A stretch of 64,000 bases of DNA from Sphaerolaimus hirsutus (taxonomy: Eukaryota > Nematoda > Chromadorea > Monhysterida > Sphaerolaimidae), in contig OZ038458.1 in NCBI GenBank assembly GCA_964036195.1, positions 12,785,832 through 12,849,831 of the forward strand, in the 5' to 3' direction. The position numbers were made by a program, and so were the translations under genes. Within the stretch, counting starts at the first letter, position 1. Each line of letters opens with the position of its first letter. The notes beneath the pieces are model-generated. The model was not told the DNA's origin. It did not search any database and saw nothing but the letters and a program-made list of their open reading frames with translations. Positions 20,549-47,984 of this stretch are shown here, piece after piece.

Positions 20549-20977
20549 ATGTCCAAAAATTGTGAAAACGACTTCGTGGAGTCACGTGGCGACGCAGACG
20601 CCGATCGTGACCACGACTCGTCAATTTGGTCATCTGTTGCAGACCATAGTGCGAGTCCAGACGACGCACCGTCTGCAATAATTCTATCCACTTCGGGTGA
20701 AGGCCGGAATTTGAGTACGAGCGACTCTAACGTCAGTAAAAATACGATACTGAATTTGGCAGACATGTCGGAGGATAGATCGGCGCCAGACGAAGGGGAA
20801 CTGTCGAACAGCGAAAATCGAGACCCGTCCGGCTCGCAAGGCGCCTTGGTGATCGACGCGGGCGATACTATGGACACGCGCGACGAAAACATGCCGCGCG
20901 AGGCAAACAATGAGAGACTTGAGCAGAACGAAGTGAGTCATGCTCAATGGGTAGATGCTCGAGTTTTTCCGGCGTAG
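20549..20977 (+). CDS. Acidic 142-codon ORF, possible first exon of LINE ORF1
   Basis: The frame encodes a Ser-, Asp- and Glu-rich chain (MSKNCENDF to RLEQNE). A consensus splice donor GTGAGT follows codon 128 at 20933. An acceptor TTTTACAG at 21239-21246 would join it in phase to DAGGACSSSARKKR of the long frame, giving a 314-nt intron. Alternatively it is a short separate upstream ORF, overlapping the start of the long frame by 31 nt. No family is recognised. Confidence 0.5.
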   Translation: MSKNCENDFVESRGDADADRDHDSSIWSSVADHSASPDDAPSAIILSTSGEGRNLSTSDSNVSKNTILNLADMSEDRSAPDEGELSNSENRDPSGSQGALVIDAGDTMDTRDENMPREANNERLEQNEVSHAQWVDARVFPA

Positions 20978-28740: not shown

Positions 28741-29756
28741 AGTTATGGATACACCGCGCCGGCAGCCGACGACCTTCAAGGCTCTCCTCGCGTCACTGGT
28801 CGACTGATACTAGTCCCATCTTTCTTTCAATTGTGATTTGTTCATTTGATATACGAGTTTTATATGTACAAAGTTATAATTGCATATTAGTCATTGCAGT
28901 TTATTTGATACATCCGTTCGCGTAATAACTGTGATAGAAATGTTATTGGTGTGACTCGACACACATGTCTTGCATGGTAGTCACTGCCACGGCGAACCAA
29001 TAATGAACATATCAAATTCAATTCAAGCATGCAGGTGAATACAAAAAAAATTTAACGTAGATTTTGTGAAATGGGTTGCGACGTTGGTATCTTGAATTTC
29101 GACCCTCACAGGGGCCGGATATTGCAGCTAATTGCTCCTCCCGAGGGAAGATAGCTAAAAATTTGTAATTTGCCAGCGAGGTGCCGCACATGAACGTTTT
29201 GTTGCACAAATGGGACTAGCAAACCACTAAATTTTTGGTGCGTGGGTCCAAAGGCGACCCATCTGCCAAGCACTTATTAATTTGGGGGGGGGGGTTACGG
29301 GGTTCGATATATAGAGGCTTTTTCAAGGAGAAAATCACAAAATTAGTGATTTTTTTAGGTGAAAATATATAAAAAAATGTGAAAACTTGCAATCATGAGC
29401 AAAAATGTTTTTAAATCACAACAATGAAAGCAACAAAATGGCACCAGTTCTGCAAATTGGCAGCTAAAATCTCAAGCAACAGGATACAATACTTTTTATA
29501 GAATTTTACAGACACTCGAGTTTTTGTAATTTTTTTACTAAAATTGTACAAAAATTCAAATTTCTGTACAATTTTACTAAATTTTGAATTTTAGTAAACT
29601 TGCATTTTTATTTTATTAATTTTCCATTTTATTTTATTTTATTTTATTCTCCAATTTTCCATTTTATTTTTATTTTTTTTCTGAGATTTTGCCAACCCTG
29701 GTCATGGAGCTGATTCGTTAAGTGTGGTCCACGTGTGTGTGCTGCAACAAAACAAC
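28741..29756. other. Spacer between the LINE and the LTR element
   Basis: It contains a G run near 29285 (a possible degenerate G-rich MITE), and T/A-rich ATTTTATTTT runs at 29590-29690. There is no gene-sized coding frame and no RNA gene that I recognise. Confidence 0.5.
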
Positions 29757-32376
29757 TGTCATGAATTTTCACCGGCTACTTTTTACTCAACCAAATTCCA
29801 CTATGGCAAACTGCCAAGTTTTACCGATCTCACACCTACTCGTTGGATGAGCGACAAAGTAAGGCAACGGAAAAGCGACTACCGATTGAATTCGCAACGC
29901 ACAATGGTGAATTCACCGAAGTGAATATCACAGGTGTACGCTACGTCAATTAAGTTAGCTTTTTAGCGAATGGCGTTTTTTATCAACGCACCAGCAATTA
30001 GTTGAATGTCTAATTTACACCAAGGGGTCCGAAGTTTTTAGAAGAGATTTTATTTTAGGCGATTTTTAGACTTAGAATTCACACATTTAGATAGAACACA
30101 GGGAACACACTGAGAGCGAGTTTCTAACCAGCGGCACAAAACCTTCGAAAAAACTCCAAGAAAATAAAACCGAAGCAATTTCGACTGAATCGACCCCTAC
30201 TCTAAATTACGGTACGCTTTTATACGCAACAACATAAGCCAAGTCCAGACAACACTTCCACATACCACGAGAAGCATGCTTACAAACGACTTTACAGACA
30301 CACGGAATTTTAAAACGGGCATACCTAAAATTATTCACGGCGTCAGTTTACAGGATACGTCGATCAACTACACAAAAACACAAAGAATTCACGCGCCAAA
30401 AATCGGGTTGGGAACAAGAGCGAGGATAAAAATAGAAAATGAGAAAATGAACGAATGCGACAAGAATAAAAAGAACAGGAAAAACACACGAGATACTGTA
30501 AAAACCTGTTTTAGCGCGAAAAAAAATGGCGGGCGATTCAAATTTTACTCAGCGAACTCTACCGAAATCCCAAAACCACCTCCACGAACGGGGAAACACA
30601 CAGCAATTAGCGAAACAAATAAACACGCGAACAATAATCCCATCAGCAAAAAGAGCGTATAATAAATGAAAATGACGTTGATATCCAAAGCGTAAGAAGC
30701 ACACGTATTATTAATGCACAACGAAAAAATGTCGTAAGTGGGATAATCCATGATAAAATTAGGATACCGGTAAGACGAATGGAACTAACTTTCACACTGA
30801 CTGTCAAGGAAAAAATGAATTACGGTACCGTTTTAAAGACTCTTAGCGGAAATTCTATCAGAGTGATTAAATAACTACGCACTCAAATCAGATCACCTTT
30901 ACACTTATCAAAATATTCGGGGAAAAAACAGGAAAAACAAGCGGCTTATTATTTCATCTCTTTGTATAATAAAGATCAACCACGAAATTTGCATAAATTC
31001 CTAAATATCCAAATGTCAAGTTATCAGTTCTCTAGGGGAAAGGGAAATACAAAAAAATCAATCTAGAAAAATAGCGAAGTTGCAAACGTAAAATCAAATA
31101 AAAATTAGCATACTCGAGTTTTACCTATTCCTTACCAAACCTAAAGTTAAAATGAAGTCGGTATAACGCTTGACAAAAATACGAACGCAAATGATTGGCA
31201 ACTTGAAAGTTTATAAATTTCAATCTTTGTATCTTAAATGCATGTTTGGATTGCATGACTTTTTGAAGTTTAAAACAACAACAAAAAACAAACTCAAGTG
31301 AATCCACTGCCACATGCCGAAACGCAACAGCCATTAACTACCGAAGGCACTTATCACGAAAATGACCACTCTCGCTGCTACACCACTCATTCTGCTACCA
31401 GAATATTAATTAGTTAGCCACGGCTTTTTGATCCCATACGCACTGTGCAAAAACCACACCCCGAAAGTACCGAACTGCTCAACTCACTCAAAAATAGGTA
31501 CACTTGTCACTGTATGGGTGCTTGTTTCGATGAGATCGGCGGACTGGGCTGTTCTCACAACAAGCCAAGGGAGTAGGCATTTAGACATGCGATCATGCCT
31601 GTCGAGTTAGACTCGATTCTTTTAATTACCTCTCATTTTCAACACCAATCATCATCACACCTCTATAATCAGTGTACCTTTGTAAAATCGCTTGTAAATT
31701 AACTTTTGTTTCCAAATCCGGAAATGCAGGAATGCACAGTACATACTAGATCAATAGCCGCGACCCTCACGTCAAAAAAAGTGCAACGAAAGTTAGTCAA
31801 AATTCAACCTATGTGCCCTCAGTTATCACTGACCATTCACGCACTACGACACGTAACTGCAGCGTCACTCTTTTTACTTAGAGGAAATAACTGAAACTTT
31901 GTTATGCAATCCAAACCGCTAGTAAAAAAAAAATTACTTTCAAATTAAACTGTCACAATTAAATTTGTTGCCAATTCACTTGTCTCACTTTCTAAAAAAA
32001 ACTACCTAATTAAAAAATCTAAACAAATAAAAACAACTATTTACATCACAGCGTCAACTTTGTGTCAGATCCTCAATACCTCCAATCCTTTCCTTGGCCA
32101 GAAAAAACACACATAACACAATGGGGCACCGGAAAAACGGAAATGCACGTTGCCACGTTGCCAACGTAGCGCAGCGACGTAGCCGAAAACGTCAACGCCA
32201 CGTTCGCCCACCGAATCGCCCAAAACCATCGTCGAAGTAGAACTGAAATGTTTAAATTATTGTAAGCTCGGAAGTGTAAACAACCCTCTACATAAATTCA
32301 TTAAGTAAACTACATATACATTTATACTTAAAATTTTTGAAATTTTACAATTTTTGGACACCCACTTTTGCTCACA
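29757..32376 (-). repeat. LTR, 3' copy in element orientation
   Basis: The copy is 2,620 bp and matches 45025-47644 throughout as far as I compared, including all short frames. On the minus strand it begins TGTGAGCAAAAGTGGG and ends CATGACA. It is much longer than typical Gypsy LTRs (a few hundred bp). The short frames it contains (for example 128 codons at 30276-30662 on the plus strand) are antisense to the element, and I do not consider them genes. Confidence 0.93.
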
Positions 32377-32679
32377 AACTCCACCAGCCATACATTTTAC
32401 CTCCCGGCTAAAATCGAAGCACAGCAAAACTATTAAAGAAACGAATTGAACTAAATTCCCGTTTTTTGAGAATTATTTTAAACCAATTTTAAATTTGTTG
32501 ACAACCATTACGCATGCATTTTTCCACACTTTGTTGAGAACACAAAAAAAACTTTTGAACCGGTAAAACTCAATAAAAATTCAATTTCCAACTCAACAAA
32601 AGCTCAATTCTACTGGTAAAACGTTCGCTCTAACAACTAAAAACAAAAACAAAAAAATTCCTGTACACCTAAATTACCA
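32377..32679 (-). other. 3' untranslated region and probable polypurine tract
   Basis: This lies between the helicase stop (32680) and the 3' LTR. On the minus strand the last bases before the LTR are GGCTGGTGGAGTT, a purine-rich stretch at the place where the plus-strand primer (polypurine tract) is expected. It is not a perfect purine run, so the exact primer is uncertain. Confidence 0.5.
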
Positions 32680-35600
32680 TTACTCCGCTTCCATCTCCTC
32701 CTCTGGCTCCAAACCTGCCAAAGTTGGAGTCACTGGCGGGGGCGGACTCTGTTCCTCTTGCGGTGGCGGTGACGCGCCAACTACAACAACCTGAACAGGT
32801 TGCTGCAGCTGCTGTGCGGCCACTTCCTCAGGCTGCTCTTGCTCCTGCTCATCTTCCTGCATGGGCTCAGCAGACTCATTGGCCTCCTCCTGGATGGCGT
32901 CCATTTGTCTTAGTATCTGCCGGTCTGGGCTCATGGACTGTTGCTGTCGCTCAGCGTCCAACTCGGTGTTCAACTCGCCCGCCATTTGAATTAACTCATC
33001 CAATTTTTCTCCAATGATTGCATTATTGGCCTCTTCAGTATCTGGCTCTGGTTCTTGCTCTTGCCGTTGACCTTCCATTGTCGGTTCCTGCTGTTGAGCA
33101 CCTTGTTCACTTTGCTCCTGTTCCACCTCCATCACTTCCTCCTCCTGCTGCGTTTTCTGTTTGTGTGCCGGTACGGGCGGCGCGTGTTCAGACTCCGAGG
33201 CCGAATCGGTTTCACTCGATCCCGATTTTGACGAACCCGACGACGAACTAGAGGAAGAGGAAGAACTCGACGAGGGAGAGCGACGACGACCGCGATACCG
33301 ACGCCGAGACCGAGAACAACTCGCTTTTTCGTCCGCGCGCGGCTGAACTTTTTCTGACTCCTCCTCCTGCTCTTCGGGCGGCAACATTTGCACGTCTGGG
33401 GAATCGGGAGCGGGAACAACGTCAGCGTCTGGCTGAGGGGACACTCGCTGTTCGCTCACATCCACCTCCTGAACCTCTTCCGGCGGCGGCGGAACCTCAT
33501 TTTCTTCTTCTTCTTGCACGGGCGGAGCGGGTTCTGGCAGATCGACCGGCGCACTTCTCCAGTGGCCCAGAAACCTAGCCAACGGGTCACTCTCCCACAA
33601 ATGTCGCTCGTGGTACGCAAAAACGTGCCCCTTTCCTAATTCCACCGCCACAAAGCGCCAGAAAAATTCAGAATGCAGCACGGTAGCGGCGTTCATAATC
33701 ACGACTCTGGCCGTTTTGGCGCGGGACGTGGCCACGTTGCACCGCTCCGGCATCGCCAAAAAGCCAATTCTGTCCATCACATCGCGCTCGCGCTGCGACG
33801 GGTGTCCAGTAGCGTCCACGCGCGGCGCGCTGCCCCTCACACATGACACAATTACCACGTGCGCTTCACGAGCTTGCGCTCGATCGGCAGTGATGACTTT
33901 TTTCCGCCAAAACGCTGGGGTCACCAAATAATCGGGGAACCCCTCACCCCCTAACAGCTGCGCCCAGCTCAGTCGCACCAATTCGTCAATCACTCTTCTC
34001 TCCTGCGCGGAATAGAAACACACAATCAGCAGCGAATCGGCGCTTTCTAAATCACTCCACGGAACGACATTCTCGCCCTCGCTGTTCAGCGCCAAAATGA
34101 CAAATTGCTGCACAACGCGCACCACAATGTCCACTTCCGTCAAATTTTTAACAGACACGCCCTCGCTCGTTTCGAAACCCATGTGCACGATCACAGAAGA
34201 CAAAGGCACCTGATCGGCACCGCAAGCCATGAGCGGCAAAGTATCTTGCCACTGACTGTATTCGTGGAACGCGCGCAATTGGCCATCGTACGCAGCGACT
34301 GAATTCGCTTGAATCAGCGCGTCGTGGCCGCGGAAGACAGTCTCGAGCTTCAGAATTGGGCACAACACACCTTCCACCAACCTATTGATCAGCGATGGAT
34401 CAGGTTTCAGGATCGGAGCGATCCATGAATGCGGCCTGACCATTCGGGTCAACTGCTTGCTGTCGCCAAACAAAAGCACCAAGCCATTGTGGGGGAGTCG
34501 AGCGTTTGAAACAGCGCCAAAAATCGCAGTTTCATCCGCCAAAGACGCCTCGTCCACAAATACCGCGGCATATTTCAAAACTTGCAGTCGCTTATCGCGC
34601 GATGAATCCAAGGTCACATGGACTTGGCCTGGCTGCAGCACATTCAACACCACCTTATGCAACCTAGTAGCCACCCTAACGAGGCGTCGCATTTCGCGCT
34701 TGTAAATTTTGCCCCACACCTGGTTGTCATCGACAAAGCCAGCCGCGGCCCCCCACGCCTGCACGCCCTCCTCTTGACCATCGTCCAGCGGCACCAGGTC
34801 ATCCTCGTCGTCTTCGTCGATGGACAAACGAACCAAAGGCAACTGCGACCGAATGGCTTCGAAAATGTCGGCGGGGTGCTGATTGTTCGCGATGATCTCG
34901 TTCAAAGTGTCACAAATATGGCGTTGAGCGGTAAAGCGTTCATAGGCAGTTAGCCAGTGGTCATTCAATCGGATCACATGCATGGGCATGTTTTGCGCGA
35001 TCAAATTCAGCAGCGGCAATTGCTGGAGCGTCATATCGACGTAGCGATCGTCAACTTCCAACAATGGACTCAGCACGCGAATCGCGAAAGCGGCGCGCAC
35101 CTGACAAAAACGCGCATAGCCAGGTGTTTGAAAATTTGGCTTATCATCCATCGCAGTCCACCTCTCCCTATCGCGCAGCAAAACTTCCACGACCGTTTCC
35201 AAATTAGGCAGACCAATGTTTGCCAAACTTTGCAACGACCGTCTGGCAGACTCATCAGCGGCCGAATTCACACTGCAAGTAGTCATTGTGGAGTGGTAAA
35301 GCGCATTTTTGTTTGCATCAGAGGGCAATTCCCTCTTCAGCGGGTTTGGCGGGCCATTTTTCTCAGTAAATTTGAACGCAACCGCGTACGCACACTGACT
35401 TTGCACAGTCGTTTTACCGGAACCGAACGGTGAATCACACATCAACAATAGCGGCGCAGTTTTTCGCACAGACTTGATAACTGACGCAATCACACGCCCC
35501 TGCCCCTCCTGCGGCCGAAAATCACCCTGCTGCGCTTGCAATAAATCTTCGCATGTGCCTCTGCGCACCTCGGCGTACAACCCGTCAGACTCAATTTTGT

Positions 35601-37236
35601 CGAGCGTGCGCTGCCAATCAGTCTCAACTTGGCTCAACTGCTTGTGCAGCACTACCGCCATTTTGACCTGGTCTTCCACAGCGAGCATTCCGGTGTTGCT
35701 CTCGGTTGGCCGGTAGCCACTAGGCCCCATTATGCACAACCGCTCCAAAGTTTCCATGCGGCCATTGTAGCTAGGCGACAAAGCGGAACCGCGCACCATG
35801 TAATCGCAATTAGGCAGCAAATGCGGCGACAGCGCCTGCGGCACCAACACATCCGGCTTGGCGATCAACTGCACCGCCTCGGCAGTGATGTCGGCGCTGA
35901 CCGTACGTAAATTTATTTGCGGGCGGCCAGTCAAAGCGCGCTCCTCCCCCCGGGGATCAGCTTCGACGATTTGTAGCGACGACATGGGCGAAGTGAAATT
36001 CAACATGTAGCCCTGCGCCTTATTCCTGTGCCACTCGGCCGTGTCGCGCATCGCAGCAGCTGGATTCAAATGCACGCGCTCCCACCTAATTATCGCAATT
36101 AATCCCCGCGGCCCATTTTGCCAAGTTACCTGCGCGCGCACCGCTTTCGCCCTAGTCGCAGTGTATCGCAAATGCGCTTCGTGACACACGTTAGCGGCGG
36201 CCAAAAAGATGGAACGAAGCTGCAGCTGAGAGGTGAGGTAATCTCTATTCATTTCGCCCTTCCATTCCATACCAGCCTCGATTTGCCGCGCCGAGAAAAT
36301 ACGCACGCCATACGCATGACCCCAATAAAAGTTGTTGACTTTGCCGGCGTCATCAAAAGCGTGATATTCTACATGCGCCACACCTAATTGTCCGGCGTGC
36401 GGGTGTATGTCACTTTCCATGACATTTTCGCTGTGCGCAAAAATTAACTTTTCAGGGCCCGGATCCCGCTCGTCGGCGCCTTTGAAGGGGGGTGCACTAA
36501 TGTACCGCGAAGGGGTGAACGCTGCCCTCAAACGCAAGTATCTCCACTTGGCCGGATAAGGATGATATCCTTCGCGATTTTCCTGTCCTCTCTGTGAAAT
36601 TTCCGATGCGGGCTCATCGACGGAGAGGTCAACCTGTCCTTGCGAAACGATAACAACAGGGCGGCCCAAAAACAATGGCATTTGAGCGTCATTTTTCATA
36701 ATTGTGACGCCTCGCAATTCCCAATATTTCGGATTGGCGCTAACCCTACTGATACCAGTCGCGACAAAATGCATGCCGTGGCGGACAAGCGGCAAAAACA
36801 TGTCGTAAGCTTCGTTAGTCTCGCGATATTCCCTCAAAATTTTCTGCACCGACCGCTCACGAGCGCGCTCCGCTTTGTTGACCGAATAGGTGAAAAAGGG
36901 ATAAGCCGTTTCCGCTTCCGACCACTCCGGATAACTTTCCAAAAGCGCCTGCGCATCGCCGTCGAAACGAATGTGGCATTGATAACTGGTAGGACGCGGC
37001 TCGTTACCGACGTGAACTCGATCCACTATTCCCGACAACTTCTGGTTGATGACAAATTCAGGACAAGTCGACCGGGCGTTTCGAGGAGGATTGTAGGGCA
37101 GCGGCGGAATAGTGTCACCGCCTTGTTTTCCATGAGAAGTCCACGACTTGAGCGGCGCTTTGGCTATGCGCCCGCCACGGTACGAACTGGAACTCGCTCC
37201 ATACCCACCCATAGGTACGCCACCCGAACTAGTCAT
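32680..37236 (-). CDS. Upf1-like superfamily 1 helicase encoded by the LTR element
   Basis: The ORF is 1518 codons. Residues about 1-590 are not recognised. The helicase core follows: Walker A SPFGSGKTT (near 604-609), Walker B with DEAS (near 894), LLFGDSKQL (motif III, near 925), VFRGHDALIQANS (motif IV), and a C-terminal RecA half with SCVRGS and GFLAMPERCNVATSRAKTA (motifs V-VI, about 1130-1172). These fit the Upf1/DNA2-NAM7 branch of SF1 helicases, many of which act on RNA. The C-terminal about 300 residues are low complexity: acidic and Pro-rich, an RS-like basic patch (RRRYRGRRR), a serine run, then Gln/Glu-rich repeats. It starts 533 nt after the pol stop, so it probably needs a spliced or internal message. 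Helicase ORFs are not a standard part of Gypsy elements. The role is unknown; protecting the element RNA from decay is one possibility. Confidence 0.85.
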   Translation of the reverse strand: MTSSGGVPMGGYGASSSSYRGGRIAKAPLKSWTSHGKQGGDTIPPLPYNPPRNARSTCPEFVINQKLSGIVDRVHVGNEPRPTSYQCHIRFDGDAQALLESYPEWSEAETAYPFFTYSVNKAERARERSVQKILREYRETNEAYDMFLPLVRHGMHFVATGISRVSANPKYWELRGVTIMKNDAQMPLFLGRPVVIVSQGQVDLSVDEPASEISQRGQENREGYHPYPAKWRYLRLRAAFTPSRYISAPPFKGADERDPGPEKLIFAHSENVMESDIHPHAGQLGVAHVEYHAFDDAGKVNNFYWGHAYGVRIFSARQIEAGMEWKGEMNRDYLTSQLQLRSIFLAAANVCHEAHLRYTATRAKAVRAQVTWQNGPRGLIAIIRWERVHLNPAAAMRDTAEWHRNKAQGYMLNFTSPMSSLQIVEADPRGEERALTGRPQINLRTVSADITAEAVQLIAKPDVLVPQALSPHLLPNCDYMVRGSALSPSYNGRMETLERLCIMGPSGYRPTESNTGMLAVEDQVKMAVVLHKQLSQVETDWQRTLDKIESDGLYAEVRRGTCEDLLQAQQGDFRPQEGQGRVIASVIKSVRKTAPLLLMCDSPFGSGKTTVQSQCAYAVAFKFTEKNGPPNPLKRELPSDANKNALYHSTMTTCSVNSAADESARRSLQSLANIGLPNLETVVEVLLRDRERWTAMDDKPNFQTPGYARFCQVRAAFAIRVLSPLLEVDDRYVDMTLQQLPLLNLIAQNMPMHVIRLNDHWLTAYERFTAQRHICDTLNEIIANNQHPADIFEAIRSQLPLVRLSIDEDDEDDLVPLDDGQEEGVQAWGAAAGFVDDNQVWGKIYKREMRRLVRVATRLHKVVLNVLQPGQVHVTLDSSRDKRLQVLKYAAVFVDEASLADETAIFGAVSNARLPHNGLVLLFGDSKQLTRMVRPHSWIAPILKPDPSLINRLVEGVLCPILKLETVFRGHDALIQANSVAAYDGQLRAFHEYSQWQDTLPLMACGADQVPLSSVIVHMGFETSEGVSVKNLTEVDIVVRVVQQFVILALNSEGENVVPWSDLESADSLLIVCFYSAQERRVIDELVRLSWAQLLGGEGFPDYLVTPAFWRKKVITADRAQAREAHVVIVSCVRGSAPRVDATGHPSQRERDVMDRIGFLAMPERCNVATSRAKTARVVIMNAATVLHSEFFWRFVAVELGKGHVFAYHERHLWESDPLARFLGHWRSAPVDLPEPAPPVQEEEENEVPPPPEEVQEVDVSEQRVSPQPDADVVPAPDSPDVQMLPPEEQEEESEKVQPRADEKASCSRSRRRYRGRRRSPSSSSSSSSSSSSGSSKSGSSETDSASESEHAPPVPAHKQKTQQEEEVMEVEQEQSEQGAQQQEPTMEGQRQEQEPEPDTEEANNAIIGEKLDELIQMAGELNTELDAERQQQSMSPDRQILRQMDAIQEEANESAEPMQEDEQEQEQPEEVAAQQLQQPVQVVVVGASPPPQEEQSPPPPVTPTLAGLEPEEEMEAE

Positions 37237-37769
37237 ATTTCACACTTCAAAGTAGAGCACCGGAAAACACAACTTATTGCTACTTAAAATGCGCCACCCA
37301 GAATGTCGGCACCGAAATGCACGAAGGTCTGAGCGACACCCTAATCGAAAAATTGCGAATTATTTTCAACGCACTACGTTGAACGTATTGCGCCAAAAAT
37401 AATTTTTATTTTGTTGCGAAATGGGCGAAAATGAGAACGAAATTAAAGAACAAGTTTAGAACGAAATAAATGCGATAATATGAATAACTGGTGAATTAAA
37501 ACTGCGACGACAATTAGGAACAAACAATTAATAACACTTATGAAATTTTCGCGCTTTACCTCTTACATAAAAAACCAACTTTTTGCTACAAAATTATCTC
37601 GCGCACAACCAAAAACACAAAAATTGCAACCCCGAACTCACCACGAATTGACGGCCGAAATTAAACGCGAATAATCCGAATAAAAATGAAATTGAATTTT
37701 AATTTAAGTTTCGAACGGAATAATTGACTTGGGACACTTTAGGTTGAAGAGCGGAAAATCTCGGGGTTT
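37237..37769 (-). other. Untranslated gap between pol and the helicase ORF
   Basis: This 533-nt stretch has stops in all minus-strand frames. It should hold the splice acceptor or internal start signal for the helicase ORF. I could not single out one acceptor with confidence. Confidence 0.5.
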
Positions 37770-40573
37770 TTAACCGAAAATCTGCGAATAGGTGGGATTA
37801 ACTGGTTCATTTGTTAATTTAACGCGATCAGCATGAACGGTATAAGTTTTCTTAGACAACCTATTAAACACGGTCACAATGGGATGCACATAATCTAAAC
37901 ATTCATACGGGCCAATATAATGATGCGTGAACTTCTTAACGCGACCTAACTTTCGAAGAATTCGGGGCGAATAAACGCGAACTGATTGACCGGGCTTCAA
38001 ATTCAAGCGGCGCGCACTGCGATTTGCAAAAAAACACTCTTTTTCTTGCGCGCGCTGTAAAGCCGAATGCGCGGCCGTGCGGACGTCCGAAAGTCGCGCG
38101 TCTAAATTTGACACAAAAGGACTATACGCCGTCGGCTTATCGGTCTTATCGGTGCCATTTCCCGTCGGCTCGATCATACGCTCCCAAAGTGACGGAGAAT
38201 TTGATCCAAATAGCAACGCATATGGTGTCACTTTCATAGAGGGGTGCATAGACGTATTATACGCATAGACAGCGGCGCCTAAGTGTTTGTCCCAATCCGA
38301 ATGCGAGCCATTCACATAATGCGAAATTATTTCCATTAAGACGCCATTCCTGCGCTCAACCAAACCATTTCCCTTTGGCGTGTAGTTGAAACACTTATGC
38401 TGCACTGTATTTAGATAACGTAGCAATTCCGCAAAAATGCCGCCAATGAAGCTTGGTGCATTGTCGGATAAGATTACAGCGGGCACACCAAAAATCGGTA
38501 ACACATGTTGCAAGAACGCAATAGCCACAGTATCTTGCTTCAAATTAGGAACAGGTACTGCTAAACCAAAACGCGTACATTGATCCACAAATACCAATAC
38601 ATGCACATTCCTTTTTTCGGTAATTGGCAATGGCCCTACTGCGTCAATCGCAATAAAATCACCAGGAAACTTGGCGATTTTCCGGCTCTGAATTTGAGTT
38701 TTCATTGAGCGGCGCAATCCTTTCTTCGCGTTGCACGAAGGGCAAGTAGAAACCCATCTAGCGCATTCTGGACGCATATTTGTAAACCAAGCAAATTCGC
38801 GCAATCTTTCAAACGTTTTCATCACACCTAAATGTCCAGCAGTGGGATGATTATGAGCCAATTCTAACACAGTGACAACTAGTGACTGGGGAATGCACGC
38901 AGGGTCGTATTTCCTTTCACCCACTAATATTGACGGTTCTGCATCACGCCTAACAACATCAAATTGATCAATGAAAAACGGTGGGGCCCTACGCAAAGTA
39001 GATTCCTCGCACATACGACGAATTGTAATTATATACGGTTCTTCTTTTTGCAAACGCGACAACTCTTCAATTGGAGTAATGGGAGGAGGTAAAGCATCGA
39101 GTCTTTCCGGTTTCTTAATTAATTGAACAGAACGGCGGCCACCAGCCATTAATTTAGGCGCATCGTCACTTTTGGGCGGCGATTTCAAAGCATTTTCAGA
39201 ATTGGACTCCACCTTCTTTTTACTTCGCACACGCATTGTCATTGGATGCGGCGCCCGCACAGTAGCAACGCTTGCCACTGGCAATTCAGTAGCTACCGTA
39301 ACTGACGGTTCCAGAGACTTCATTTTCGCATGTTTCAGCCAATTTTGAGCAGAAGCCAATCGCGCCATGGCCTTAGCTACCGCTTGACAAGCCAAATGTT
39401 CCTCAGATGTTAACAACGCCATTTCCTCAGTCAAAATTCTCGCCAATTCATCAACAGGTATATCAAATGCATATTCTTCAAACGCTTCGTCTAAATTAAC
39501 ACGCTCATCAAATTCAACGGGTGCATCACGCCGGCGCGACAAAGCATCAGCCAATTCGTTACTTTTCCCACGCAAATGCTTAAAAATAACTTGATATGAT
39601 TGAATAGCAAGCGCAAATCGGTGCAAACCCGTATGGGGATGGGTTTCCAAATTTGGATTTTTCACCCATGAAATACTTTTCGCATCAGTCCAAACTTCAA
39701 ACGGTCGGCCCGCTAAATAACAATGCCAATTGCGTATGCTCTCAAAAATAGCACATGCTTCTTGCGTAATTGCAGGCCATCGGGATTGCGCTTCGGAAAG
39801 TTTTCGACTATAAAATGAACACGCATGCAAAGCGGCGGCAGGTTCAGCGCGTTGTACTAAAATGCCAGCTAATGCAACTTTAGAAGCATCGGTAATAATT
39901 ATAAACGGTTTACTGGGATCAGGATACTGTATACAGGGACTTTCAGCCACCATCACTTTCAACTTATTAAAAGCTTCCAAAGCGGCGGGGTTCGCATTTA
40001 AATCTACGGGAGTACTTCCGCTATACTTTTCAGTTCCTAATTCAGTTTTCGTTCGAGTTAAATTAGACAAAGGAGCGGCATATTCAGCACATTTATGAAT
40101 TAATCTCCGGAAAAACCCAACGGCACCCAAAAACGCTTTAACTTCACGCACACACACAGGTAGCGGCCAGTCACTCAAATACTTTCGCTTATCATCTGGT
40201 ATACAAATCCCTTCACGCCCTACCATATAACCCAGGAATTTAACAGCAGTTGTGCGCGCGAAAAAACACTTTTTCGGGTGTATTTTAAAACTGCTACTTA
40301 TCAAACGCGACAAAACCTGACTTATATCACTCAAATGATCTTCCCATGACCTACTGTAAATGAGCAAATCATCTATATATACCAACACATTTCGATGCAA
40401 TAATCCAGCCATTGTAACTTCAAAACAGCGCTGCGCTAAAGCCGGGGAACACTTTAATCCCATCGGCAAGCGTTTCATCTGAAATTGACCAAAACAATTA
40501 CGAAACGACGTAATATGTCTATCATCCGGATGCAGCGCAATGTTGTAAAACGCTTGATTGATATCGACACTGC
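37770..40573 (-). CDS. pol, downstream part: RT palm, RNase H, integrase
   Basis: The open frame has its first ATG at 40478, but coding continuity clearly reaches back to the frame break near 40590. The RT active site VLVYIDDLLIYS is near residues 32-42 from that ATG. RNase H follows with ITDASKVALAG, TQEACAIFESI, VWTDAKS and DALSR. Integrase has the zinc-binding HHCC module (AHNHPTAGHLG, then CPSC) and the DDE triad: AIDAVGP, LSDNAPSF and LVERRNG. The C-terminus ends YSQIFG. This is the standard Ty3/Gypsy order. The enzymes would copy the RNA and insert the cDNA. Confidence 0.92.
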
Positions 40574-43500
40574 TAAAAATATTTGCAACTGTGCAATGAC
40601 TCTATTGTATCGTCTAATCTGGGCAGCGGAAATTGGGGAGCGTGAACTACTGCATTTAATCGTCGATAATCTATCACCATGCGCTTGGCACCATCCGGCT
40701 TAGTAACAACTAATGTCGGCGCGCAGTACGGACTCGTACTGTGTTCAATGACGTCATGCTCAAGCAGGCAACTTAAATGCTTTTCTAAGTACTGCTGGTC
40801 ATCCAAACTCAACCTATACATTCGACACGCGACCGGAATTTTACTAGTCAACTGAAGTCGATAATCAACCAATTCACTGTATCCCAAATCATACTTATCC
40901 CTGGCGAAAGCATCCTGATGAGTCAAAATTAACTCTTTTAATTGCTGGCGCTTAATTTCGTCCAATTCAACCGGTACTTCAAAATCCATTTCTCTCCCAT
41001 CGGCACAAACCACTTTCATAGTCGTATTCGCCGCTTTTGAAGGTACAGTGCCCTTCGTTGGTACTTTTTCCTCATTAGCTTCAAGTATAGTATCGGTAAA
41101 ACTCATATCACGCTCGCGGCACTCTCGCACCCACTCAGCAGGCGGATCACCTCGACGCACTTGTAAAACACACTCCACTGGCTCTACGATGGCAATTTTC
41201 TGGCCCACCTGCAACTTTACTGGCACCTCAGTCACATTAACACACCTCACCGGAAATAATTCACTCGCGCTTTCATAAACAGCATTAGCTGCAAACACAC
41301 CCGTTTTCACATGAAATTCATTCAAAGGCTCAATCGCAAACGTCAATTCATCAATTGGTTCAGATAATTTCGCACTAATTATCGTTTCATGCCGCGGCTT
41401 AATTTCAGTCGGTTCAGTCACAACTGCATAAATATGCCGTTCTTGCACTACAGGCGCTGGGTTGTCAAAAGGCACAGTCAACTTTTTACGCGCATCGCCA
41501 CTCTCAATTCGCAACTCGCGCGCAGGCATATCAATAACCATATGCCTCAATACATCAGCGCCTAATAAAATGTCGTCCGACAAGCCGCTAATCACCTGAA
41601 ATACAATAGAAAACGCTTTCCCGGTAATCATCACTTGAAGTTCCAACTGACCCTCAATTTGCAATTTGCATTGAGACGCGCTTTGCAATCCCCCCACAGG
41701 CGTGACCTCATCAAACGCTATGCAATTATTTCGATGCCTAGCCAACACCAGCGGGCTGCACAATGACCTCATCGCACCTGTGTCCAACAGACACCTTTTG
41801 TATTCATTCCCCTCAATTTCTACCGTAATCGACGGACTATAGTAAATTGGCACGAGTTCTTTACGCTTAGCCGTAATACTTTTGATGTTCGCAATTTCTT
41901 CACTGGTCAGCGTGACTACATTCACCTTTTCCATGACGGCAGAACCTTTAGGAACGCGCAGCGGCGGCAAACGCTTGAATCTACTCACTGGCGTTTCTTC
42001 AATATCGGCACCATACCCTGAACTGTCAGCGCTACCTGGATTTAACCTTTGCGGCGGTGTCACGGGGGTCGCACCCCTTGCAGGATTACGCCTATTTTCT
42101 ATTGCTAACATGCGATTTAATTGAACCCGCAACACTCTCATTTTTATCCAATCACACACTGTGAACACTAAATACAACACCAATTCACACAAAGCGGGCA
42201 GAATATATCTCAAAAACACGGAAGTACACATTCCAGCGATAAATCCCTCAAGAAAATTTCGCACGGTCAAAATCCACTCATCTGACACTCCTTTTTTCTT
42301 AACAACGCCACCACTTGGAACACCCAGGGCGTCAGCACTTGCAAAAAACGTAAATAGACAGCACAGGAAAAACACACGGTTCAACACACTGGGCAACATA
42401 CTCGGTTCCGACCACGTTCGGTACAAAGTCGGCACGCTCGCTTCACAATACTCGGACAACACGTACAATTCAGAGTCAGATGACGTTCGCGACAAACTAA
42501 TGTCCGGCGGTTCACACATAAATGTATGCATGGTCAATTCTAGCAGCGCTTCTAACTTAACGTACGTCAACGTGTCCTCAGGGTCATCATGCGGATGCTC
42601 ATCAGCATGCTCACAAAACCCGCTTATATTCAACCCCTGCAAACCCATGTGTTGCAATTGAGCCCACCACTTTGTTCGAAAAATCATGCTATCTAACGAA
42701 CGCGCATAAACCCAAGGCATAATCCAAGCCTCTCTTTCAAGCATGAATTGATGTTCTTGCGGCGTTATTTCAGGCGGATTGCATGGATCCTCTGCTTCCT
42801 CATCTGAACTTTCAAGACCCGGTACAACCCTAATCATGCGCACATATTCCTTACTTTCTTGCACGCTGCGTGCATGATTCACTGAGTTCGCAGACACGCG
42901 CGTCGGATTTAACGCAGTCAATTCAGTTGACGGAGGGGCCGCAATGGCCATTTGCGATGATTGAACTTGTTGCACTGGAGACCAACTAGTAGTTGACACT
43001 TGCGCGGGAGGGGGATAATACAGGTAAGGCGGCGCTTGCATGGAATATACAGGTTGCTGTGCAGAGCGCATCATATTCGCTGGACCTCTGAAGTTATTCA
43101 TCGGTCGCTGCGGCGGCCCGCGCCGAAAATTTCTAAAGCGCGCTTTTTCCTCTTCTGTCAATTTAGGACAATCAGAGCGAAAGTGATCATCTGCCCCACA
43201 TTCATAACAGCCCTCATCAAATTTACGCGGCCTAAATTTGGAAACTGGTTTCGCAGCATTATTACCTATCAATTGCTTTTCCAAGTCAACTAAACGCTTA
43301 TCCTTATCCTCTAACTGCCTAGAAAGTTCTTCCAATTTCAGTCGCTGTTCCTCAAACTTTGGATTTTCCACCGCCGCCGGAACGGGCGGGGAATTTCCGA
43401 AAGCTCCCGCACCCCCTAAAGCAAAAATTCGCTCGATTACCGAATTGGTGGCTTCTGAAACTAATTCAGCGTTGGATTTTGACTTTTTCTTACCACCCAC

Positions 43501-44964
43501 TTTGTCCTTATCAATTTCCAGAAAACTTTCTTGCGTGCGCGCATTATTGACTACGTCTTGAAACTTAGCCCCGGCAGTAATAGATACATTCCTACGGATG
43601 TCAGGATACAATCCACTGACAAATTTCGCCACTGCCATCTTTTCGCGTTCAATTTTTGAAAGTTTCGGGAAAGCGCGTTTTATAATTTTCTCCAGCCGCA
43701 CTGACCAATTTAACACATCTTCATCTTCGCCCTGCTCACTACTAATCACTTCCCTTTGCGCATGATGCTCCGAAATGGGGTTAGTATAATAACGTTCCAA
43801 AGCATCCATGAACTCCTCATAATCTAAATTAATCAATTCACTCTTATGCGACATGTAAATCGAACGCGCGCTGTCACGCAAATAAACCGGAAGCAACGAT
43901 TTTCGCTCATCCGTCGGAATTTGCAACGCCTCACAAACTGCGTCCCAATTTTTACGCCAATCAGCAAATTTATCATCAGCGCGCCCCTTAAAAGGTATCA
44001 CCTGTCCAGTAAGCGCGGTCATGGCAGCAGCATAACCCTCCCTACTAGTAGCAATCATACTCACAGCAGGTATAGGTGGTGTGGTAGCGGTAGAGCACCC
44101 TCCCGAATTAGAAACAGCGCTAATTACAGAATTAATCGCTTGCATATCAGGCTTTTCTAAATGAATATACTCAGCAAATGCATTAATCGCGTCCGCAATT
44201 TGACTCACATCATTTCGCAAATTATGGCAGTCAACACCTAACTTTACTAATGACACTAATTTTTCGTCATTATCACTCATGTTCCCATTTTCCAGAGAAC
44301 TCATGGGTCGCTGATTATACAAATAAGCGGCAATACTCACCGTTTGAGTCACGACCTGACTAAGGTTCCATTCTGACCCCTGAACCGAATTCCCCACTAT
44401 CGACGAATTAATTTGATTCAAAGTCAAATTTTTCGCTTGAATCAACAATTGCACCACATCGGGACCCGTGTTCACACCACTACCGCTCGCATGCGCCATA
44501 CTCAAGGTAGAATACCGGAAAAACACACACTCACTCGACGACTGGGTACTCGCGCTTCGGTACCCGGCACTCGCGCTTCGGTGCCCTAACTTACTTTGCC
44601 CTACGGTCGGGAATGGCACCTCCGCACCCGCACTTGGCTTGCCTTGCTCACAGGTCGGGAATGACTCCTCCGCACCTCTTTCAGGGACCGGTCCTTCCGC
44701 GTCCACCCAGCAGTTGACGTCAAAGTCGTTAGGTTCGTCACTCAACTCAGCGGTTCCCGGTTCAGAACAGTGCGCGTCCGTACTGAACTGAACCGATTTC
44801 GGTTTTTTCTTACTTTTCCGCTTTTCCCTTTTTTGCCCACTAATAATTTCGTCAGTTTCGCGTCCCAAAACGAAAATATCCGTGCTTATCGGTTGCGTCG
44901 ATCGGGTAGCCTTCCGTTCCTCCAGCCGGGCGGTGGTTCGTTTGTTCTCACCAGCGATTGTCAA
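40574..44964 (-). CDS. gag-protease and N-terminal part of RT
   Basis: The frame has 1463 codons. The first ATG lies 60 nt after the LTR; an internal ATG at residue 156 (MAHASGSG) may be the true gag start, because the first 155 residues are low complexity. A gag-type region spans about 300-500 (VSGLYPDIRRNVSI). The zinc knuckle CYECGADDHFRSDC is near 585-598. Two hydrophobic stretches follow at about 855-885 (VFFLCCLFTFFASADA) and 895-940 (YILPALCELVLYLVF). The aspartic protease has LLDTGAM near 1060 and ILLGADVL further on. RT begins with CRMYRLSLDDQQYLEKHL and PTLVVTKPDGAKRMVIDYRR. The frame stops near 40574 in the middle of RT, so this copy cannot make full pol without a frame change there. 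Membrane segments between the knuckle and protease are unusual. Confidence 0.9.
40585..40600 (-). other. Frame break inside RT
   Basis: On the minus strand a run of five T followed by AGCAG puts a stop in frame in the middle of the RT domain; similarity to RT continues in the +1 frame. The site is inside a conserved domain, not at a gag-pol border, so programmed frameshifting is unlikely. A single-base indel in a homopolymer, real or from sequencing, is the simplest explanation. Confidence 0.8.
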
Positions 44965-45004
44965 ACGGTGATCAGTCGCCTGAACTCACTGGGAATATTA
45001 AACA

Positions 45005-45022
45005 AACCACTCGCTGCTACCA
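45005..45022 (-). promoter_or_regulatory. Primer-binding site, initiator-Met-tRNA-like
   Basis: On the minus strand, two bases after the 5' LTR, the sequence TGGTAGCAGCGAGTGGTT follows. It starts with the TGG complementary to a tRNA CCA end. The first nine bases match the 3' end of animal initiator-Met tRNA, and TGGTT agrees further in. This supports tRNA-iMet priming, as in many metazoan retroelements. Confidence 0.7.
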
Positions 45023-45024
45023 GT

Positions 45025-47644
45025 TGTCATGAATTTTCACCGGCTACTTTTTACTCAACCAAATTCCACTATGGCAAACTGCCAAGTTTTACCGATCTCA
45101 CACCTACTCGTTGGATGAGCGACAAAGTAAGGCAACGGAAAAGCGACTACCGATTGAATTCGCAACGCACAATGGTGAATTCACCGAAGTGAATATCACA
45201 GGTGTACGCTACGTCAATTAAGTTAGCTTTTTAGCGAATGGCGTTTTTTATCAACGCACCAGCAATTAGTTGAATGTCTAATTTACACCAAGGGGTCCGA
45301 AGTTTTTAGAAGAGATTTTATTTTAGGCGATTTTTAGACTTAGAATTCACACATTTAGATAGAACACAGGGAACACACTGAGAGCGAGTTTCTAACCAGC
45401 GGCACAAAACCTTCGAAAAAACTCCAAGAAAATAAAACCGAAGCAATTTCGACTGAATCGACCCCTACTCTAAATTACGGTACGCTTTTATACGCAACAA
45501 CATAAGCCAAGTCCAGACAACACTTCCACATACCACGAGAAGCATGCTTACAAACGACTTTACAGACACACGGAATTTTAAAACGGGCATACCTAAAATT
45601 ATTCACGGCGTCAGTTTACAGGATACGTCGATCAACTACACAAAAACACAAAGAATTCACGCGCCAAAAATCGGGTTGGGAACAAGAGCGAGGATAAAAA
45701 TAGAAAATGAGAAAATGAACGAATGCGACAAGAATAAAAAGAACAGGAAAAACACACGAGATACTGTAAAAACCTGTTTTAGCGCGAAAAAAAATGGCGG
45801 GCGATTCAAATTTTACTCAGCGAACTCTACCGAAATCCCAAAACCACCTCCACGAACGGGGAAACACACAGCAATTAGCGAAACAAATAAACACGCGAAC
45901 AATAATCCCATCAGCAAAAAGAGCGTATAATAAATGAAAATGACGTTGATATCCAAAGCGTAAGAAGCACACGTATTATTAATGCACAACGAAAAAATGT
46001 CGTAAGTGGGATAATCCATGATAAAATTAGGATACCGGTAAGACGAATGGAACTAACTTTCACACTGACTGTCAAGGAAAAAATGAATTACGGTACCGTT
46101 TTAAAGACTCTTAGCGGAAATTCTATCAGAGTGATTAAATAACTACGCACTCAAATCAGATCACCTTTACACTTATCAAAATATTCGGGGAAAAAACAGG
46201 AAAAACAAGCGGCTTATTATTTCATCTCTTTGTATAATAAAGATCAACCACGAAATTTGCATAAATTCCTAAATATCCAAATGTCAAGTTATCAGTTCTC
46301 TAGGGGAAAGGGAAATACAAAAAAATCAATCTAGAAAAATAGCGAAGTTGCAAACGTAAAATCAAATAAAAATTAGCATACTCGAGTTTTACCTATTCCT
46401 TACCAAACCTAAAGTTAAAATGAAGTCGGTATAACGCTTGACAAAAATACGAACGCAAATGATTGGCAACTTGAAAGTTTATAAATTTCAATCTTTGTAT
46501 CTTAAATGCATGTTTGGATTGCATGACTTTTTGAAGTTTAAAACAACAACAAAAAACAAACTCAAGTGAATCCACTGCCACATGCCGAAACGCAACAGCC
46601 ATTAACTACCGAAGGCACTTATCACGAAAATGACCACTCTCGCTGCTACACCACTCATTCTGCTACCAGAATATTAATTAGTTAGCCACGGCTTTTTGAT
46701 CCCATACGCACTGTGCAAAAACCACACCCCGAAAGTACCGAACTGCTCAACTCACTCAAAAATAGGTACACTTGTCACTGTATGGGTGCTTGTTTCGATG
46801 AGATCGGCGGACTGGGCTGTTCTCACAACAAGCCAAGGGAGTAGGCATTTAGACATGCGATCATGCCTGTCGAGTTAGACTCGATTCTTTTAATTACCTC
46901 TCATTTTCAACACCAATCATCATCACACCTCTATAATCAGTGTACCTTTGTAAAATCGCTTGTAAATTAACTTTTGTTTCCAAATCCGGAAATGCAGGAA
47001 TGCACAGTACATACTAGATCAATAGCCGCGACCCTCACGTCAAAAAAAGTGCAACGAAAGTTAGTCAAAATTCAACCTATGTGCCCTCAGTTATCACTGA
47101 CCATTCACGCACTACGACACGTAACTGCAGCGTCACTCTTTTTACTTAGAGGAAATAACTGAAACTTTGTTATGCAATCCAAACCGCTAGTAAAAAAAAA
47201 ATTACTTTCAAATTAAACTGTCACAATTAAATTTGTTGCCAATTCACTTGTCTCACTTTCTAAAAAAAACTACCTAATTAAAAAATCTAAACAAATAAAA
47301 ACAACTATTTACATCACAGCGTCAACTTTGTGTCAGATCCTCAATACCTCCAATCCTTTCCTTGGCCAGAAAAAACACACATAACACAATGGGGCACCGG
47401 AAAAACGGAAATGCACGTTGCCACGTTGCCAACGTAGCGCAGCGACGTAGCCGAAAACGTCAACGCCACGTTCGCCCACCGAATCGCCCAAAACCATCGT
47501 CGAAGTAGAACTGAAATGTTTAAATTATTGTAAGCTCGGAAGTGTAAACAACCCTCTACATAAATTCATTAAGTAAACTACATATACATTTATACTTAAA
47601 ATTTTTGAAATTTTACAATTTTTGGACACCCACTTTTGCTCACA
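45025..47644 (-). repeat. LTR, 5' copy in element orientation
   Basis: The copy is 2,620 bp, the same length as the LTR at 29757-32376 and apparently identical. It is followed on the plus strand by CAAC, matching the duplication at the other end. It should carry the promoter of the element on the minus strand. I did not identify a definite TATA box or polyadenylation signal. Confidence 0.93.
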
Positions 47645-47984
47645 CAACCCCAACTCTAAAACAGTCCAAGTGTGATATTCTTGACGGGGTGGTTGTCGTG
47701 GCAGCTGGTTATCCAGCACTAGCCATTGCAATCATAAATTTCGGGCTAGGGGTTTCATTGAAATGAGTGAAAGCCACTGCCACAAGAGCATTGTAATCAT
47801 TCACGGATTTCACATGCCATAATTCCAAAGTTTGACATGATGAAGTTACATGTCAAGTTCAAGGTTGGCCTGAAAGCGATTCTTGATCTGTTTGGTTCAG
47901 TAGGCCGTTGGTCAGCGGTCAAGTGAATATAAAAACCAGTTTTTAGTTATCGCATTTAGGAACGCGAATTTTGCCTCTGCCGTG

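What the first reader, a model, noticed from the sequence alone, without database searches (positions are those of the whole stretch)
32680..37236. Upf1-like SF1 helicase carried as a third ORF by a giant Gypsy-like LTR element
Seen: an intact 1518-codon frame inside matching LTRs, in the same orientation as gag-pol and between pol and the 3' LTR, with Walker A GSGKTT, DEAS, GDSKQL and Upf1-type C-terminal motifs. Known: Gypsy elements may carry an envelope gene here, and Upf1-type helicases act in RNA decay and silencing. Inference: the element acquired an RNA helicase that could protect or remodel its RNA, or interfere with host nonsense-mediated decay. The 590-residue N-terminus and the RS-like, Ser-run, Gln/Glu-rich tail are unexplained.
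Basis: partly seen in the sequence, partly recalled or inferred. Interest (0 to 1): 0.88.

Follow-up and report, generated by a model that had tools for sequence, protein, structure and literature searches.

The report
Retroelement carrying a Upf1-like helicase gene
A very recently inserted virus-like jumping element, probably in a roundworm genome, carries beside its usual genes a large gene for an enzyme related to the helicase that cells use to police their messenger RNAs; such a passenger is unusual and could let the element manage or defend its own RNA, but only one copy could be examined.

Summary
On the minus strand, 37236-32680, lies an intact 1518-codon ORF with an AAA_12 (Upf1-like SF1) helicase core and its core motifs. 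It sits between integrase and the 3' LTR of a 17,888-bp Ty3/Gypsy-type element with identical 2,620-bp LTRs and CAAC duplications: a recent insertion. The 533 nt before the ORF3 ATG are depleted of ATG (1 seen, 6.6 expected, P 0.0025), like the gag leader, unlike the stretch after ORF3, suggesting that ORF3 has its own mRNA. No close relative was found; the nearest are helicases of prokaryotes and a phage, 21-38% identical. It is not Upf1 itself (no Cys/His cluster) nor the viral-type helicase known from insect retroelements. Its codon use differs from gag-pol. Other copies, dN/dS and RNA could not be examined: the genome search did not complete. This copy's pol is broken by a frame change in RT. 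Best reading: an accessory helicase acting on the element's own RNA. Main rival: a passenger gene in this copy only.

The parts
29753..29756 (.). target-site duplication CAAC, left
   Evidence: sequence read directly
29757..32376 (-). 3' LTR (2,620 bp; identical to the other LTR)
32680..37236 (-). ORF3: intact 1518-codon frame, Upf1-like SF1 helicase
32683..33552 (-). ORF3 tail (residues 1229-1518): Glu/Gln/Pro/Ser-rich, with Arg-rich stretch and Ser run from residue 1322
33691..34395 (-). ORF3 AAA_12 domain (residues 948-1182)
   Evidence: E 1.3e-19
33715..33744 (-). motif VI RCNVATSRAK
33832..33885 (-). motif V region DRAQAREAHVVIVSCVRG
34450..34467 (-). motif III GDSKQL
34543..34557 (-). 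motif II (Walker B) VDEAS
35410..35424 (-). motif I (Walker A) GSGKT
35467..37236 (-). ORF3 N-terminal region, residues 1-590, no recognised domain
   Evidence: structure model unusable
37237..37769 (-). non-coding gap pol-ORF3, depleted of ATG; probable 5' leader of an ORF3 mRNA
37770..40601 (-). pol, second frame: rest of RT, RNase H, integrase
40573..44964 (-). gag-pol, first frame: PNMA-like capsid, weak CCHC and protease matches, start of RT; ends at the frame change in RT
42145..42399 (-). hydrophobic, TM-like segments between CCHC and protease
44497..44499 (-). first gag ATG; no ATG in the 525 nt between it and the LTR
44594..44594 (-). strongest splice-donor-like site of the element (AAAGTAAGT; G of GT), in the gag leader
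   Evidence: consensus match only
45010..45022 (-). probable primer-binding site TGGTAGCAGCGAG, two bases from the 5' LTR
   Evidence: read by eye; tRNA not identified
45025..47644 (-). 5' LTR (2,620 bp)
47645..47648 (.). target-site duplication CAAC, right

Best explanation
ORF3 is an accessory gene of a large, recently active Ty3/Gypsy-type LTR retrotransposon. It encodes an apparently catalytically intact Upf1-like SF1 helicase, acquired separately from gag-pol and translated from its own (spliced or internally started) mRNA. The protein most likely acts on the element's own long, polycistronic RNA: it binds and translocates along it, strips or remodels host RNA-surveillance and silencing complexes, and so helps export, stability or packaging. 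Shown: element, ORF, motifs, position, ATG-depleted leader, distinct codon use. Inferred: separate mRNA, separate acquisition, RNA as substrate, benefit to the element.
For: Intact 1518-codon frame in a complete element with identical LTRs and a target duplication. AAA_12 at 1.3e-19; best single-sequence PDB matches of the core are NAM7 (6.5e-4), SMUBP-2 (0.022) and Upf1 (0.023); a three-row profile reaches NAM7 at 5.6e-42, SMUBP-2 at 8e-39 and Upf1 at 2e-38. Walker A, DEA, GDxKQL, FRxH, the Q and E of motif V and SRA of motif VI are invariant with a phage and a cyanobacterial helicase. ATG depletion before ORF3: 1 in 533 nt, P 0.0025; same for the gag leader (0 in 525, P 0.0025); none in the control stretch after ORF3 (5 seen, 4.1 expected). 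The strongest donor-like site of the element lies 95 nt before the gag ATG. Precedent: the C. elegans element Cer1 makes a non-envelope protein, CERV, from a spliced mRNA, needed for export of its genomic RNA (PMC10309623, abstract and passages).
Against: One copy only; no second copy, no dN/dS, no RNA data. No good splice acceptor in the pol-ORF3 gap (best 5.6 against 11.4 for the best in the element, C. elegans-like weights recalled, not fitted to this host). An AATAAA in that gap (read by eye) would, if used, end transcripts before ORF3. Codon use unlike gag-pol would also fit a passenger gene. The helicase could act on DNA. The pol of this copy is broken. ATG depletion would also be found if a host gene had been taken up with its own 5' leader; and in the gag leader the other-strand control CAT is low too (2 in 525), though not in the gap (9 in 533).
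Confidence: 0.5

Rival explanations
1. Passenger: a host (or foreign) helicase gene was carried along, intronless and with its 5' leader, in this copy or a small subfamily, and does nothing for the element.
For: ORF3 codon use differs from gag-pol in 6 of 6 windows (0.07-0.20 against 0.33-0.69 for 9 of 9 gag-pol windows) and correlates better with 513 codons of host exon-bearing frames (0.72, against 0.29 and 0.14 for the two gag-pol frames). Identical LTRs mean that even an unselected gene would still be intact.
Against: The host model (266 codons) fits ORF3 worse than the gag-pol model, and the LINE model fits it best, so ORF3 is not plainly host-like. No near relative in the protein database (0 of 7992 and 0 of 7989 scored candidates). 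No AATAAA seen by eye between ORF3 and the LTR (sequence), so no sign of a gene with its own 3' end.
Confidence: 0.27
2. Counter-defence: the helicase is a decoy or antagonist of host Upf1/NMD or of a small-RNA pathway, acting in trans on the host machinery rather than on the element's RNA.
For: Closest solved structures are NAM7/Upf1 and SMUBP-2. A gag-pol mRNA with ORF3 and a 2.6-kb LTR behind it would have a very long 3' UTR, a known NMD trigger (recalled). Helicases of insect retroelements showed weak silencing suppression in a plant system (PMC6338049, part 1 of 4 read).
Against: No Cys/His cluster: only six cysteines, widely spaced, in residues 1-590, so a Upf1-type zinc domain (recalled as the Upf2-binding part) is missing. 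The catalytic motifs are kept, which a pure decoy would not need. No functional data.
Confidence: 0.13
3. Helper of reverse transcription or DNA repair: the helicase unwinds template RNA or cDNA during copying of a 17.9-kb element.
For: Large element; SMUBP-2 and DNA2 are among the profile matches; co-operation with RT was proposed for insect elements (PMC6338049, part 1 of 4).
Against: Separate ORF downstream, not part of the Gag-Pol polyprotein, so no obvious route into the particle (inference).
Confidence: 0.08

Closest known systems
Eukaryotic Upf1/NAM7 and SMUBP-2 (Upf1-like SF1 helicases)
   Same: AAA_12 domain and core motifs I, II, III, V, VI
   Different: No Cys/His-rich N-terminal domain, 289 residues between motifs I and II, unrecognised 590-residue N-terminus, Glu/Gln/Ser-rich tail; weak single-sequence match
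Viral-type SF1 helicase domains in insect LINEs and some LTR proteins (PMC5563155 passages; PMC6338049 part 1 of 4)
   Same: SF1 helicase acquired by a retroelement
   Different: Those are related to replicase helicases of plus-strand RNA viruses and fused to retroelement proteins; here a free-standing Upf1-like ORF3; no viral helicase family among the Pfam matches at E up to 10 (filters drop most matches above 0.1)
CERV of Cer1, C. elegans LTR element (PMC10309623, abstract and passages)
   Same: Extra, non-envelope protein from the 3' part of a nematode LTR element
   Different: CERV is 517 aa, no helicase (the word was not found in the paper's main text)
ORF3 enzymes of bdelloid rotifer LTR elements: DEDDy exonuclease, GDSL esterase (PMC5408684 section 10)
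   Same: Captured enzyme as separate ORF3 in place of env
   Different: Different enzymes; helicase is mentioned there only in a reference title
Burro giant Gypsy-like elements of planarians (PMC6431247 passages)
   Same: Giant Gypsy element with host-like extra domains
   Different: Extra domains in a polyprotein and accessory ORFs; no Upf1-like helicase in the passages read
MkoA-type and other prokaryotic or phage AAA_12 helicases
   Same: 21-38% identical stretches; PADLOC MkoA 8.3e-13
   Different: Match confined to the helicase core; unrelated setting

Membership tests
Ty3/Gypsy LTR retrotransposon | two LTRs with target-site duplication | tested here: met
   2,620 bp identical, CAAC both sides
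Ty3/Gypsy LTR retrotransposon | gag, protease, RT, RNase H, integrase in that order | tested here: met
   capsid match is just at its cutoff (25.1 against 25 bits), CCHC and protease matches are below theirs; RT split by a frame change
Ty3/Gypsy LTR retrotransposon | pol most similar to Gypsy-type pol | tested here: met
   395 proteins at E up to 1e-3 of 7990 scored; of the 120 listed, 8 bear an element name (7 Tf2, 1 17.6), all Gypsy types, most have none; no BEL or Copia set was compared; place in a quick tree unsure, long branch
Upf1-like SF1 helicase | AAA_12 domain and motifs I, II, III, V, VI | tested here: met
Upf1 proper (NMD factor) | Cys/His-rich N-terminal zinc domain | tested here: not met
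   six scattered Cys in residues 1-590, no Pfam match there
Viral SF1 helicase captured by retroelements | match to the viral helicase family | tested here: not met
   not among Pfam matches at E up to 10
Envelope ORF of errantivirus type | fusion glycoprotein with signal and TM | tested here: not met
   one weak hydrophobic stretch, residues 1032-1050, inside the helicase core, no Pfam match
Stable gene of the element family | present and conserved in other copies | not testable with these tools
   The genome search unanswered 14 times; no other copy found in the rest of the window

The most novel reading that the evidence does not exclude
A lineage of giant Gypsy elements carries its own Upf1-like helicase, made from a separate mRNA, which takes over RNA surveillance on the element's long genomic RNA and so counters NMD or small-RNA silencing: a retroelement-encoded rival of Upf1.
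Probability: 0.2. Interest if true: 0.85.

Novelty: new variant of a known kind. Interest (0 to 1): 0.6.

Why it matters
LTR elements are known to pick up extra ORFs, and insect retroelements carry viral-type helicases, but the listings of my ten literature searches showed no Upf1-like helicase as the free third ORF of an LTR element. If conserved across copies, it would give a direct handle on whether retroelements fight RNA surveillance with the host's own class of enzyme, and on how very long retroelement RNAs are kept stable and exported.

Tried and rejected
Structure prediction of residues 1-612 and 523-1215 of ORF3, without an alignment, gave pLDDT 32 and 34; no fold search was made with them.

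The protein database does hold eukaryotic retroelements, so the lack of hits is not only missing coverage, but the word-based search misses distant relatives.

An insertion boundary around ORF3: only short repeats that look like chance. A relation of ORF3 to the LINE product: only a weak match of the low-complexity tail, E 0.015. Structured RNA in the pol-ORF3 gap: z -0.93, not significant. Rfam and tRNA: nothing in the window. A programmed frameshift as the cause of the pol frame change: considered unlikely because it falls inside RT; not tested.

Full report
What is there. Plus-strand translation of the same stretch is broken by stops. It lies inside an LTR element of 17,888 bp, 29757-47644, also read on the minus strand. 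The two LTRs are 2,620 bp each with no mismatch: the first difference in the comparison falls at the LTR end. Both flanks carry CAAC. The insertion is therefore recent. A probable primer-binding site, TGGTAGCAGCGAG, lies two bases inside the 5' LTR (by eye; the tRNA was not identified).

The element. The first frame (44964-40573) holds a PNMA-like capsid match (1.4e-5, just at its cutoff), zinc-knuckle and protease matches below their cutoffs, and ends at the start of RT. The second frame (40601-37770) holds the rest of RT, RNase H and integrase. The order is that of Ty3/Gypsy elements. The frame change falls inside RT, so this copy's pol is broken, unless the change is a sequencing error; intact copies could not be looked for. 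A search with the second frame found 395 proteins at E up to 1e-3 of 7990 scored. Of the 120 listed, 8 bear an element name (7 Tf2, from fish and sesame; 1 17.6, from Bombyx), and unnamed or hypothetical ones include proteins of Caenorhabditis brenneri, Daphnia and an alga. A quick tree of these 120 and the window's pol puts it on a long branch with no sure neighbour. The host is probably a nematode: the flanks hold exons with Ge1/EDC4 WD40, Hsr-9 Tudor and BRCT matches. This is an inference from family names.

The third ORF. Pfam gives AAA_12 at 1.3e-19 over residues 948-1182 and nothing else above a curated cutoff, even at E up to 10. PADLOC gives MkoA at 8.3e-13, NCBIfam the IGHMBP2 helicase at 4.4e-9, far below its cutoff, PHROGs nothing. 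Against solved structures, the core alone matches NAM7 at 6.5e-4, SMUBP-2 at 0.022 and Upf1 at 0.023. A profile of the core with one phage and one cyanobacterial relative reaches NAM7 (5.6e-42), SMUBP-2, Upf1, Sen1, ZNFX1, DNA2 and Aquarius; since the core alone is weak, most of that strength must come from the two added rows. Walker A, DEA, GDxKQL, FRxH, the Q and E of motif V and the SRA of motif VI are invariant in the three rows, so the enzyme looks competent. The N-terminal 590 residues match nothing and contain only six scattered cysteines, so the zinc domain that marks Upf1 is absent. Motifs I and II are 289 residues apart in ORF3 and roughly 330 in the phage relative (from the alignments). 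The tail, residues 1229-1518, is rich in Glu, Gln, Pro and Ser with an Arg/Ser stretch; its SR-25 match is below the cutoff and may be composition only.

Relatives. No protein of 7992 and 7989 scored candidates reached the threshold. Plasmid and phage records give 12 and 1 matches at 26-32% identity over part of the core. These show a widespread superfamily, not an origin. The phage match (58.5 bits in a two-sequence comparison) is stronger than the match to any solved Upf1-like structure (21.3 bits at best); the programs differ and eukaryotic relatives are few in what was searched, so this does not prove a prokaryotic source.

Signs of expression. Between pol and the ORF3 start lie 533 nt with one ATG; dinucleotide shuffles give 6.6 on average, P 0.0025. 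The last 331 nt, a stretch chosen after seeing the ATG, have none (P 0.0035). The gag leader has none in 525 nt (P 0.0025). A control, the 303 nt after ORF3, has five against 4.1 expected. The other strand (CAT) has 9 in the gap and 2 in the gag leader; the LTR has 32 ATG and 37 CAT in 2,620 (all). So the gap shows a strand-specific lack of start codons; in the gag leader the other strand is low as well. Start codons are thus avoided just before gag and just before ORF3, as expected if both are reached by scanning ribosomes on their own mRNAs. The best donor-like site of the element, AAAGTAAGT at 44594, is 95 nt before the gag ATG, but the gap has no good acceptor, so an internal start of transcription is as possible as splicing. 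Splice weights were recalled C. elegans-like values. An AATAAA lies in the gap and none between ORF3 and the LTR (by eye); whether the first is used is unknown.

Origin. GC at third positions is 0.60 in ORF3, 0.45 and 0.38 in the two gag-pol frames, 0.55 in a LINE in the window and 0.68 in 513 codons of host exon-bearing frames, or 0.81 in the 266 host codons that lie inside Pfam matches. The difference in fit between the gag-pol and host models is 0.07-0.20 in 6 of 6 ORF3 windows, 0.33-0.69 in 9 of 9 gag-pol windows (each left out of its model), and -0.27 to 0.33 in 10 LINE windows; over the whole of ORF3 the LINE model fits best, then gag-pol, then host. ORF3 is therefore set apart from gag-pol but is not plainly host-like. 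This fits an acquisition separate from gag-pol, and fits a passenger as well. The host sample is small.

How it may work. Inference: the element's RNA is very long, carries ORF3 and a long LTR behind the gag-pol stop, and should be a target of RNA surveillance. A Upf1-like translocase made by the element could strip or remodel proteins on that RNA, much as Cer1 uses its own protein CERV to get its genomic RNA exported (PMC10309623, abstract and passages). Alternatives are listed as rivals; the strongest is a passenger gene.

Known and new. Papers seen: PMC6338049 (part 1 of 4 of the text), PMC5563155 (passages), PMC10309623 (abstract and passages), PMC5408684 (passages, and section 10), PMC6431247 (passages). 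They document viral-type SF1 helicases in insect LINEs and some LTR proteins, exonuclease and esterase ORF3s in rotifers, and giant Gypsy elements with extra domains in planarians. Ten searches, judged by their listings alone, showed no Upf1-like helicase as ORF3 of an LTR element; several listings were capped and the library lacks most subscription journals. I file it as a new variant of a known kind: accessory-gene capture by LTR elements.

Limits. Everything rests on one copy. The search of the organism's own genome did not answer in 14 tries. Selection on ORF3, its presence in the family and its mRNA are untested. Structure models were unusable.

Noticed in passing
20947-28692 (+): A LINE-like element with an unbroken 2581-codon frame: endonuclease and RT at the C-terminal end, and about 1450 residues before them with no Pfam match. 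By eye the stretch VLVIGDSS ... DGLHGS resembles an SGNH/GDSL esterase; that motif is recalled and not confirmed.
   Followed up: partly
42145-42399 (-): Hydrophobic, membrane-like segments (residues 856-940) in the first gag-pol frame, between the zinc knuckle and the protease, an odd place for them.
   Followed up: no
40573-40601 (-): Frame change inside RT splits pol in a copy whose LTRs are still identical, so the lesion is very young, came with insertion, or is a sequencing error.
   Followed up: partly
44500-45024 (-): The 525-nt leader between the 5' LTR and gag has no ATG in any frame (P 0.0025) while the gag frame stays open through nearly all of it.
   Followed up: yes
37237-37769 (-): The gap before ORF3 folds with a long A/U-rich hairpin and holds an AATAAA, but the whole gap is not more stable than shuffles (z -0.93).
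   Followed up: partly
5499-6233, 52294-52581, 54756-55349 (-): Host exons on both sides of the element: Ge1/EDC4 WD40, BRCT and Hsr-9 Tudor; suggests a nematode host.
   Followed up: partly
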